Below, in pieces: positions 1 to 2,069 of a stretch of 38,071 bases of DNA. Below the pieces are notes generated by a model, which was given only the letters and a program-made list of their open reading frames with translations, was not told where the DNA came from and ran no database searches. The stretch's first letter is position 1, and the number at the start of each line of letters is the position of its first letter. Source of the DNA: Chthoniobacteraceae bacterium (GTDB taxonomy: Bacteria > Verrucomicrobiota > Verrucomicrobiia > Chthoniobacterales > Chthoniobacteraceae); the NCBI GenBank assembly GCA_947476045.1, contig CANJNZ010000042.1, forward strand, positions 1-38,071, read 5' to 3'. The translations under genes were made by a program, and so were the position numbers.

Positions 1-150
1 GCTTGATGACGCCACGCTTGCGCGCACCGACGTTTGTTGCTGTGCTGTTCCCGTCGGTCGCCAAAGCGCCGCCCCTTTGCTGATGTTGTTTTTCTTCAAC
101 CATAGACCCAGTGAACCACGCCCACCGGATCCCTCTCATGTCATCTATAC
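1..150. other. Left-edge sequence, no firm gene
   Basis: No confident gene is visible. A minus-strand reading frame starts with ATG at 103 (MVEEKQHQQ...) and runs off the window edge for 34 codons. A plus-strand frame enters from the left and stops at 81-83, which would suit the end of a gene in a preceding cassette. Neither matches a family I recognise, so the stretch is left unassigned. Confidence 0.3.
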
Positions 151-262
151 GCTGCAGCGAACTCGCTCCGCTGTCACGCTGGCTGCTTCCTGCCTCCGCC
201 TTTCCCCCGCCACGCAGCCAGCGCGCCAGCTCCGCGAGTCGCTGAGCTTGGGGTCGTTAGGC
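151..262 (+). other. attC-like integron recombination site (upstream)
   Basis: The right end carries the core box GTTAGGC (256-262), which fits the attC consensus GTTRRRY. The interior folds: GCAGCGAACTCGC on the left pairs with GCGAGTCGCTGAG on the right with unpaired bases, and CGCTGGCTGC (177-186) is perfectly complementary to GCAGCCAGCG (214-223). Imperfect palindromes with extrahelical bases are typical of attC sites. The left box (RYYYAAC) is not clear near 139-150, so the left boundary is approximate. The right 19 bases, GTCGCTGAGCTTGGGGTCG (238-256), recur exactly at 753-771. Confidence 0.7.
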
Positions 263-771
263 CACTTGCGCGCACTGATTTCTCGACAACACAGAACCAG
301 ACAAACAAACCACGAACACCATGAACTACACTGAATTGAAAAGTTTCGGAAAGCCCGATGAAGTGCGCGAATTCCCGAACGGACGCCTTGAACTAATCAA
401 AATCGGCGGAGCGACCATCGTCCGCTGCATTTTTGAGCCCGGCTGGAAGTGGTCAAACTCTGTCCAGCCCATCGCCAAGACAAAGAGCTGTGAAGCACCG
501 CATTTCCAGTATCACGTCTCCGGTGTCCTGCATATTCTCATGGACGACGGGACGGAGTTCGACTGCAAGCCAGGCGACGTTTCCTTGCTGCCTTCCGGCC
601 ACGATGCTTGGACGGTCGGCGACGAGCCAGCAGTCGTCGTGGATTTTCAAGGAATGATTGATTACGCCAATTCCAAGTGAACGAACGTGGCCTAACCATT
701 CGCTGCAGCCCCGAATGAGTTCGGGGTGGACTCACTTGCAGAAGGGTTCCGTGTCGCTGAGCTTGGGGTCG
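257..771 (+). mobile_element. Integron-type gene cassette carrying a cupin gene
   Basis: The unit between the two putative cleavage points is 515 bp. It holds one plus-strand gene preceded by the core box GTTAGGC and followed 9 bases after its stop codon by the inverse core box GCCTAAC. One short orphan gene plus one attC is the normal layout of an integron cassette. No integrase gene is visible; it could lie left of the window, or this could be a cassette cluster lacking an integrase (CALIN). Unrelated chromosomal genes begin at once to the right. Confidence 0.72.
321..680 (+). CDS. Cupin-domain protein (cassette-borne)
   Basis: A 119-residue single-domain cupin. The sequence shows the two cupin-like strands: PHFQYHVSG followed by the acidic turn DDGTEFDCKPGD, then LLPSGHDAWTVGDEP near the C-terminus. 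His residues in PHFQYH and SGHDAW could bind a metal, as in the family. The substrate cannot be deduced; cupins cover dioxygenases, isomerases, storage proteins and small stress proteins. The start at ATG 321 gives a full-length fold, though no clear Shine-Dalgarno is seen. It is the only gene in the 515-bp cassette and points away from the upstream attC-like site, as cassette genes normally do. No signal peptide is apparent, so it is probably cytosolic. Confidence 0.85.
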   Translation: MNYTELKSFGKPDEVREFPNGRLELIKIGGATIVRCIFEPGWKWSNSVQPIAKTKSCEAPHFQYHVSGVLHILMDDGTEFDCKPGDVSLLPSGHDAWTVGDEPAVVVDFQGMIDYANSK

Positions 772-777
772 CTAGAT
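690..777 (+). other. attC-like integron recombination site (downstream)
   Basis: The left box GCCTAAC (690-696) followed by CATTC resembles the left end of classical attC sites. The left inner box GCTGCAGC (702-709) pairs with GCTGAGC (756-762) leaving one extrahelical G. CCCCGAA (709-715) and TTCGGGG (720-726) make a further hairpin. The right core box reads GCTAGAT (771-777), that is GTTRRRY with C in place of the second base, which may weaken recombination. The site is about 88 bp long, within the usual attC range. Confidence 0.75.
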
Positions 778-806
778 GCTCTCCGTGGCGAGTGAGGGAA
801 GTGCGC

Positions 807-2069
807 TCATTCCTCGACGCGGTAGAGGGCGGTGCGGGTGCGGAGGAAGAGGGCTTTGCCGCTGACTGCGGGGGAGGCCATGAAGCCGTCGTCGAATTTT
901 CCTTCTGCGATTTTCTTGAACTCCGGTGATGCGGCGACGATGACGACTTTTCCTTCTTCGCTGAAGAAATAGATGCGCCCTTCGGCGAGGATCGGGGAGG
1001 CGGAGTAGTTGCCGCCGATGCGTTCGCGCCATTTCATTGCGCCGGTTCTGGCGTCGAGGCAGGAGGCCATGCCGTTGTCGTCGAGGACGAAGAGGAGGCC
1101 CTTTTCGAAGAGGAGCGAGGGCTTGGTGGGGGCGGCCTTTTTTTCGCGCCATGCGACGGCGGTGTCGTCGAGCAGGCCGCTGCCACCGGGCTTGAGTGCG
1201 ATGACTTGTTTGGTGCCGAAGCCGGGGACGAGGAAGACCATGCCGTCTCCAGCGACGGGCCTGACTGCGGAGCTGTGGCAGGCGCGCTCTTCGAAGCGCC
1301 AGATTTCTTTTCCCGTGGCGGGTTCGTAGGCGTAGGCGGCGTTTGCGCCGTGGGAGATGAGCATGGGTTTCCCCTCCCATTCGATGACGACGGGAGTGCC
1401 GAAGGATTTGCGGTAGTCGCCCTCGGAAGCGGGTTTTCCGTCGGGCTGGAGGTCTTTGAAATCAATGGAGCGTTGCACATTCCAGACGGTCTTGCCGGTG
1501 GCTTTGTCGAGCGCGACGATGAACTGGTGGTCGCTGCCGTCGAAGGGGAGAATCATCAAGTTCTTCCACGTAATCGGCGAGCTGCCGGCTGCGCGGTAGT
1601 GGTTGCAGACAAAATCGCGCCGCTCCCACAGCACGGCGCACGTTTTCGTGTCGAGACACGCAATCGCGGGCGAGCCCCAGCTTACGTAGATGCGTCCCTC
1701 TTCAATGACGGGCGTAGGCGAGGCGTAGCTGTTGAATTTGTGGCAAAACTGCGGTTTTTCGACCGTGAAGAGTTTCTTGTCGTGAAGCACTTTTCCGGTT
1801 GCGGCGTCCATCGCCATCACGCCCAGTTCCGTCCCGTCCTCGCTGGCCGTGGTCAGCCACACCTGCCCGCCCCACACGACCGGCGAAGACCATGCCTTGC
1901 CGTGCGTCGGAGTCTTCCATTTCACGTGCGTCGCCTCGCCTATTTCCGTCGGCAAGCCTTTCGCATCGCTGTGACCATCGCCGGTCGTCCCACGGAACTC
2001 GGGCCAGTTTTCCCCGGCATGGAGGGCGAAAGTGAACGCGACGAGTGAGAGGAGTGCGGATTTTTTCAT
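807..2069 (-). CDS. Secreted PQQ-like beta-propeller repeat protein
   Basis: A 420-residue protein with an N-terminal signal peptide (MKKSALLSLVAFTFALHAGE) followed by the motif NWPEFRG, which opens many verrucomicrobial and planctomycete PQQ-like outer-repeat proteins. Repeated blades are visible, such as WSSPVVWGGQVWLTT, YASPTPVIEEGRIYVSWG and NYSASPILAEGRIYFFSEEG, with the aspartate/tryptophan-dock style A-T-G-K turns (DAATGKVL, DKATGKTVW). The start was placed at ATG 2069 because it creates the signal peptide; the frame stays open upstream to 2135. No catalytic residues of quinoprotein dehydrogenases stand out, so a structural or ligand-binding extracytoplasmic role is more likely. It is a paralog of the protein at 17858-19111. 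Confidence 0.9.
   Translation of the reverse strand: MKKSALLSLVAFTFALHAGENWPEFRGTTGDGHSDAKGLPTEIGEATHVKWKTPTHGKAWSSPVVWGGQVWLTTASEDGTELGVMAMDAATGKVLHDKKLFTVEKPQFCHKFNSYASPTPVIEEGRIYVSWGSPAIACLDTKTCAVLWERRDFVCNHYRAAGSSPITWKNLMILPFDGSDHQFIVALDKATGKTVWNVQRSIDFKDLQPDGKPASEGDYRKSFGTPVVIEWEGKPMLISHGANAAYAYEPATGKEIWRFEERACHSSAVRPVAGDGMVFLVPGFGTKQVIALKPGGSGLLDDTAVAWREKKAAPTKPSLLFEKGLLFVLDDNGMASCLDARTGAMKWRERIGGNYSASPILAEGRIYFFSEEGKVVIVAASPEFKKIAEGKFDDGFMASPAVSGKALFLRTRTALYRVEE

What the first reader, a model, noticed from the sequence alone, without database searches (positions are those of the whole stretch)
151..777. Integron-type cassette with two attC-like sites at the left edge
A 515-bp unit carries one cupin gene, with GTTAGGC before it and GCCTAAC after it, and foldable flanking palindromes with extrahelical bases. 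An exact 19-base repeat (238-256, 753-771) marks the ends. The right core box has a base change (GCTAGAT). The gene to the right is an ordinary chromosomal gene, so this would be the last cassette of an array, an integrase-less cassette cluster, or a stranded unit.
Basis: partly seen in the sequence, partly recalled or inferred. Interest (0 to 1): 0.7.

Follow-up and report, generated by a model that had tools for sequence, protein, structure and literature searches.

The report
Integron cassette capped by RNA-guided transposon
The left edge of this window is a real one-gene integron cassette, the last of a chromosomal array in a Verrucomicrobiota bacterium, and the site before it has been split by a small transposon whose own noncoding region appears to spell out that site, which probably locks the cassette in place.

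Summary
Window 257-771 is a 515-bp integron cassette with one gene (321-680, weak cupin match). A covariance model trained on 11 attC sites from other genomes finds exactly two sites in the window: 140-262 (76.2 bits) and 690-779 (31.6 bits). It is the last cassette: homology to a close relative that lacks it starts at 774, inside the right core box. An integron integrase lies elsewhere in the genome (contig C95).

Window 1-146 is one end of a 1,631-bp IS1111-type element, complete on contig C36. It sits between the R'' box and L'' arm of the preceding attC, so that site is split and its R'' box lies outside the window. Downstream of its transposase gene the element carries two guide-like stretches that match its flanks. 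Over 11 related elements the guides fit their own flanks better than shuffled ones (left 85 of 88 bases, 0 of 20,000 permutations; right 7 of 20,000). Two elements with another guide sit at another place, in the L'' arm.

Cassette, array end and attC-seeking insertion sequence are all of known kinds. The Verrucomicrobiota lineage and its second aim point look new. Guide function is inferred.

The parts
1..146 (-). 5' (left) end of an IS1111-type element, cut by the contig edge. Minus strand 103-1 is the start of the transposase gene; 128-139 is the subterminal inverted repeat; 140-146 is the 7-bp terminal extension.
   Evidence: Same sequence inside the complete 1,631-bp copy on C36; repeat offsets 7 and 3 bp; IS110-family transposase over cut-off in the C36 copy
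147..262 (+). 3' part of the split attC of the preceding cassette: L'' arm from 151, L' arm to 247, R' box GTTAGGC 256-262. Its R'' box lies beyond the element, outside the window.
   Evidence: attC model hit 140-262, 76.2 bits, E 2.8e-20, with non-standard pairs where R'' should be
257..771 (+). the 515-bp gene cassette
   Evidence: between the two R' cut points; absent from relative G031
321..680 (+). cassette gene, 119 aa, probable small cupin protein
   Evidence: ORF; Cupin_2 17.5 bits, below cut-off 27.2
690..777 (+). attC of the cassette: R'' GCCTAAC 690-696, L'' GCTGCAGC 702-709, L' GCTGAGC 756-762, changed R' GCTAGAT 771-777
   Evidence: attC model 31.6 bits, E 2.5e-7
774..806 (.). first bases of the chromosomal flank to the right of the array
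   Evidence: homology to G031 begins at 774, to G029 at 803
807..2069 (-). chromosomal neighbour: PQQ-type beta-propeller protein (BamB-like)
   Evidence: PQQ_2 89.8 bits; matches to the flank region in 10 of 10 genomes of the genus

Best explanation
The unit is the last cassette of a chromosomal integron-type array. SHOWN by sequence: a cassette, an attC and the 3' part of another attC, the array's end at the chromosome, an integron integrase elsewhere in the genome, and an IS1111-type element inserted in the attC before the cassette, between GCCTAACC (R'' box plus C) and the spacer that leads into L''. INFERRED: an RNA from the noncoding region downstream of the transposase gene works as a seeker (bridge) RNA. 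Its 5' guide reads GCCTAACC and its 3' guide reads the right flank, so the element is steered to attC sites. Once in, it puts about 1.6 kb between R'' and L'', so this attC can hardly form the folded bottom strand that the integrase needs. With the right core box also changed (GTT to GCT), the cassette is probably frozen in place.
For: attC model from other genomes hits both sites. Array end at 774 by comparison with G031. Integrase over cut-off and further arrays in the genome. Complete copy of the element in C36 with junctions GCCTAACC | CCT...GTCATCT | ATGCGC. Same insertion point in G028, G072, G064 (both ends) and G039 (one end). DEDD/IS110 transposase. CCTAACC kept in 9 of 9 aligned noncoding regions. 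Guide-flank agreement over 11 elements: left 85 of 88 bases, 0 of 20,000 permutations; right 7 of 20,000. Elements with another guide sit at another position.
Against: In the window itself only 146 bp of the element are present; that the rest follows is inferred from identity with C36. No RNA was seen. The consensus fold is weak: 17 pairs, 2 with compensatory change, covariation term -0.12 kcal/mol. Inside the R''-targeting elements alone the permutation figures are only 121 (left) and 596 (right) of 20,000. Right guides agree with the flank over just 1-5 bases. The second attC folds no better than shuffles (z -0.41). Loss of integrase activity is not measured.
Confidence: 0.82

Rival explanations
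1. The sites are not attC at all: the 19-base repeat and palindromes are an ordinary dispersed repeat around a chromosomal cupin gene.
For: The second site's core box is changed and its fold is no better than shuffles.
Against: E-values 2.8e-20 and 2.5e-7 from a model built on other genomes, with no further hit in 38 kb; cassette arrays and an integrase in the same genome; G031 lacks the unit with its break inside the core box.
Confidence: 0.02
2. The element is drawn to attC because attC is a hairpin. It recognises shape, not a guided sequence, and GCCTAACC in its noncoding region is chance or a captured piece of attC.
For: attC sites are palindromes, and another target found here (G408) also lies in an inverted repeat, read by eye in the output.
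Against: Guide and flank agree base by base and vary together, also at a second position in attC. The insertion point is exact in different families. The order of the two stretches and their place 3' of tnp are those reported for seekRNAs (PMC11187229, passages).
Confidence: 0.12
3. The window's cassette directly follows the integrase contig C95 (IntI, attI, one cassette, element, window cassette), so it is the second cassette of the genome's own integron and not of a separate array without an integrase.
For: C95 ends in the same element with its right end next to cassette 1's GCCTAACC.
Against: C24 ends in the same way and the unknown left side of C36 is a third candidate; C26 and C36 compete as right partners. 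No linking tRNA or flank homology was found.
Confidence: 0.3

Closest known systems
IS1111-attC group: ISKpn4, ISPst6, ISPa25, ISPa21 (Tetu & Holmes 2008 and Post & Hall 2009 seen only as cited; PMC11187229 and PMC11616780, passages read)
   Same: DEDD transposase, noncoding region 3' of tnp, subterminal repeats 7 and 3 bp from the tips, insertion at one end of attC, guide-like matches to the target in the noncoding region
   Different: In Verrucomicrobiota; best relatives in the plasmid collection are about 43% identical or less; a sister clade aims at the L'' arm. Whether it shares one origin with that group was not tested, since no reference sequences were at hand.
IS621 and other IS110 bridge-RNA elements (PMC11208160, passages read)
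   Same: Bridge RNA with target and donor loops, DEDD recombinase
   Different: In IS110-group elements the RNA lies upstream of tnp; here the long noncoding region is downstream, as in IS1111
Chromosomal integrons and CALINs (PMC8618304, passages read)
   Same: attC-bounded one-gene cassettes, array end at the chromosome, scattered clusters, IntI in the genome
   Different: Nothing basic; here the attC before the cassette is split by the element
Group IIC-attC introns (recalled; group II introns at integrons are the subject of PMC7923331, passages read)
   Same: Another kind of mobile element known at attC sites
   Different: Retroelement; here the element codes for an IS110-type transposase

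Membership tests
Integron gene cassette / attC site | R''-L'' and L'-R' boxes that pair, with an extrahelical base | tested here: met
   Met in full for 690-777; for 147-262 all but the R'' box, which lies beyond the element
Integron gene cassette / attC site | R' box GTTRRRY | tested here: inconclusive
   GTTAGGC at 256-262 fits; GCTAGAT at 771-777 does not
Integron | integron integrase gene intI in the genome | tested here: met
   TIGR02249, 417 bits, cut-off 265, C95:847-1779
Integron | intI and attI adjacent to this array | tested here: inconclusive
   Assembly breaks in the element; three possible left partners
Integron | excision or insertion by IntI | not testable with these tools
   needs an assay
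IS1111 family | IS110/IS1111 DEDD transposase | tested here: met
   PF02371 71.6 and PF01548 33.9 bits, both over cut-off; NF033542 187 bits, cut-off 140; on the complete copy in C36
IS1111 family | longer noncoding region downstream of tnp | tested here: met
   about 430 bp between the tnp stop and the right tip in C36
IS1111 family | subterminal inverted repeats, extensions of 7 bp left and 3 bp right | tested here: met
   Offsets 7 and 3 for G000 (17 of 500 shuffles score as high), repeat imperfect, 9 of 12 bases; G028 5 of 500, G064 2 of 500; in G072 not above shuffles (97 of 500) (feature from PMC11187229)
IS1111 family | no added bases at the target | tested here: met
   GCCTAACC | ATGCGC against uninterrupted GCCTAACC-ATGCGC in most sites of the genus
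IS1111-attC group | inserts at a fixed place and orientation in attC | tested here: met
   G000, G028, G072, G064 at both ends, G039 at one
IS1111-attC group | common descent with ISKpn4/ISPst6/ISPa25 transposases | not tested
   their sequences were not at hand
seekRNA / bridge RNA | two guide stretches matching the two sides of the target | tested here: met
   permutation tests
seekRNA / bridge RNA | an RNA expressed from the noncoding region and bound by the transposase | not testable with these tools
   needs RNA sequencing or pull-down

The most novel reading that the evidence does not exclude
A lineage of RNA-guided insertion sequences in Verrucomicrobiota has specialised on integron attC sites and has re-aimed its guide within the same recombination site: one set of elements sits after the R'' box, a separate clade inside the L'' arm. 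It acts as a natural, sequence-programmed lock that freezes cassette arrays, and leftovers of its right end cap many array ends.
Probability: 0.45. Interest if true: 0.68.

Novelty: new member of a known kind. Interest (0 to 1): 0.47.

Why it matters
Integrons, attC-seeking IS1111 elements and their guide RNAs are each known. Here natural guide and target vary together across families of one phylum, including a shift of aim inside one recombination site. That makes it directly testable whether the RNA alone decides where an attC is hit. It also offers a reason why assemblies of such genomes break at cassette arrays, and how cassettes become stranded.

Tried and rejected
First idea, that the roughly 125-bp stretch 'B' (GCCTAACCCCTATGAAAGGTGTCAAGG...) was a second kind of attC: rejected. 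I could find no L''/L' pair in it, it folds no better than shuffles (z -0.60 and 0.40), in C36 it is followed by the transposase gene, and in locus L101 it is joined to the other element end as a mini-element. It is the right end of the element.

Idea that the element inserts only in attC sites that already read CCCCTATG: not favoured, because the left guide ends at GCCTAACC, the 7 and 3 bp rule puts the tip at CCT, and uninterrupted sites mostly read GCCTAACC-ATGCGC. One uninterrupted C26 site does read CCTAACCCCTATGCGC, so the choice is not proved.

Attempt to find the contig left of the window by tRNA genes and by blast against fetched loci: nothing that links. Search of genome contigs with the transposase: none confirmed. 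DNA search of plasmids with window 1-900: no match. Rfam on three loci: two chance-level matches only. No solved structure matched the transposase or the cassette protein by sequence.

Rows left out. Alignment A2 was made with wrong coordinates and discarded. The guide table uses 11 elements. Of the 18 hits, these were not used: L105 (noncoding region off the contig), L106 (tips not found), L116 (contig end), L109, L110, L112, L115 (guide or tips not read). Of the 6 new hits, L204, L205, L206, L208 and L209 were not decoded, and L207 was used only as a separate prediction. One search lacked the left flank of G106_C127 (one mismatch); one search includes it. G165 has no readable right flank. 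For the two L''-type elements the flank was taken up to one base before CCTATG; anchored without that shift their agreement would be lower.

Full report
WHAT IS THERE. The window is contig C42, bases 1-38071, of an unnamed 4.37-Mb, 123-contig genome. By the gene just right of the finding, the two nearest named records (94% and 92% protein identity) are metagenome genomes labelled uncultured Spartobacteria bacterium and Prosthecobacter debontii; others in the list are labelled Spartobacteria and Chthoniobacteraceae. The cassette runs from the cut in GTTAGGC (256^257) to the cut in GCTAGAT (771^772), 515 bp. Its gene (321-680, 119 aa) is a probable cupin on a sub-threshold match only (nothing).

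ARE THE SITES attC? I built a covariance model from 11 attC sites of G028 (3), G023 (4), G017 (2) and G064 (2), none from this genome. The nine from G028, G023 and G017 come from stretches beside an integron integrase; the two from G064 do not. The named structure (R'' with R', L'' with L', unpaired bases inside the arms) is paired in 98.1% of cells, against 15-40% for slid versions, with 15 cells changed on both sides. In the window the model hits 140-262 (76.2 bits, 2.8e-20) and 690-779 (31.6 bits, 2.5e-7) and nothing else up to E=10. In the whole genome it has 11 hits at E up to 1, with 150 of 3,702 candidates scored. The first hit's R'' half is made of unrelated bases with non-standard pairs: something has replaced it.

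ARRAY END. DNA homology to the same-genus genome G031 starts at window 774, inside the R' box 771-777, and to G029 at 803. The flank region has matches in 10 of 10 genomes of the genus searched. G031's contig ends about 220 bp further left, so only that much of its cassette-free side is seen.

INTEGRASE. TIGR02249 scores 417 bits (cut-off 265) at C95:847-1779 and 260 bits, just under the cut-off, at C38. In the family, 12 of 40 genomes have a match at E up to 1e-60, 11 of them over the cut-off.

THE ELEMENT AT THE EDGE. The first bases of the window recur at the end of C26 (1-149), in C48 (45-165) and inside C36 (1-165). In C36 they are the 5' end of a whole element of 1,631 bp with a 383-aa IS110-type transposase. 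Its junctions read GCCTAACC | CCT-ATGAAAGGTGTC ... GATCCCTCTCAT-GTCATCT | ATGCGCTGCAGC. Uninterrupted sites of the genus mostly read GCCTAACC-ATGCGC. So the element sits between the R'' box and the L'' arm, with no duplication. The subterminal repeats lie 3 and 7 bp from the tips, which is what PMC11187229 (passages) gives for IS1111; for G000 17 of 500 shuffles score as high, for G072 97 of 500. The same insertion, in the same orientation, is seen at both ends in G028, G072 and G064 (the last two of another family) and at one end in G039. Left partners C95 and C24 and right partners C42 and C26 all stop in the element, so the assembly broke there and the window's left neighbour is not known.

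HOW IT FINDS attC. Downstream of tnp, nine noncoding regions align. A conserved outer stem holds CTAACC (9 of 9; preceded by C in 8 and T in 1 of this set) on its 5' side and TAGATTG (9 of 9) on its 3' side, and the second segment ends in CGGATAGGAG (9 of 9). The 5' stretch equals the left flank; the reverse of the 3' stretch reads CT plus the right flank; ATAGGAG matches the element's own joined tips (read by eye). RNAalifold's consensus is weak (17 pairs, 2 compensatory). The stronger test is guide against flank. Over 11 elements the left guide agrees with its own flank at 85 of 88 bases, and 0 of 20,000 permutations reach that. The right guide's agreeing prefixes sum to 27 against a mean of 16.4 over 10 elements, with 7 of 20,000 reaching it. 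Within the R''-targeting elements alone (left 8, right 8) the figures are 121 and 596 of 20,000, so much of the signal comes from two elements, G183 and G039_C1. These carry CGCTGGAGC and sit after CGCTGGAGC and CGCTGTAGC. For G183 both flanks are those of an attC, with the L'' arm split and an R' box downstream; for G039_C1 the right flank resembles the inside of an attC (by eye). They form a clade of their own (100/100). One guide that I read before its flank (G408, GAGCAAAC) was then found beside that element, but its tip differs and its right flank was not found. The order of the two guide stretches and their place 3' of tnp agree with PMC11187229 (passages).

WHAT IT DOES TO THE CASSETTE (inference). 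IntI acts on the folded bottom strand of attC (established knowledge, recalled). With R'' and L'' 1.6 kb apart at the left site and GCT in place of GTT at the right, neither site should work well, so the cassette is stranded. PMC11616780 (passage) says that limited experimental evidence exists on what such insertions do to integrons.

KNOWN OR NEW. Integrons in Verrucomicrobiota are in print (PMC8618304, passage). attC-seeking IS1111 elements are in print (cited in PMC11187229, PMC11616780 and PMC11089894, passages). Searches for IS1111 with Verrucomicrobi (1 paper, on goat coxiellosis by its title), seekRNA with attC (1, PMC11187229), Spartobacteria with integron (2, off topic by title), and IS110 with attC and bridge RNA (1, PMC11208160) listed no report of this lineage; the library is open-access only. 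So: a new member of a known kind, with a possibly new aim point in a sister clade.

Noticed in passing
G000 C24, C34, C60, C70 (L033, L036, L074, L076); also G029, G031, G025 loci: A conserved stretch of about 130-150 bp, ending ..TGTGATCCACTA and followed directly by GTTAGGC or a variant and a small gene, stands at the left of scattered single cassettes (4 places in this genome, more in relatives). It holds a hairpin and differs from the attI beside intI on C95. It may be a dispersed docking site for cassettes; unexplained.
   Followed up: partly
G000 C34, C21, C48; G029 (C146, C138, C191, C220), G039 (C174, C115): Right ends of the element, about 45-130 bp, stand alone between a last cassette (or no cassette) and chromosomal genes, without transposase; in G029 no transposase match was found at 1e-60 although it has several such ends. 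Why this part stays behind at array ends is unexplained.
   Followed up: partly
L101 (G029:C39), rc about 1497-1625: A mini-element of about 125 bp that joins a shortened right end directly to the left end, like a MITE of the same element.
   Followed up: no
L081 (G029:C146) against L036 (G000:C34): At the same chromosomal place, before a TPR-type gene (by eye), the two genomes carry different cassettes but the same right end of the element after them.
   Followed up: no
G000:C38:16779-17675 (L064): A second integron-integrase-like gene, 260 bits, just under the cut-off of 265, with no cassettes seen in the part read.
   Followed up: no
L009 (G000:C26), rc 10214-7000: An array of at least four attC sites beside the element; by eye it has a VIT1-like membrane protein cassette and two cassettes that look like toxin-antitoxin pairs (families not searched).
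   Followed up: no
L011 (G000:C48), about 820-1137: A run of short direct repeats of about 20 bp (..GAGAGGCTGAGAAGACTTGCT..) directly abuts a truncated left end of the element.
   Followed up: no
L207 (G000's relative G408:C41), about 1020-1110: A related element whose guide reads GAGCAAAC sits beside GAGCAAAC in an inverted repeat that is not evidently an attC, so this IS lineage may aim at other palindromes too.
   Followed up: partly
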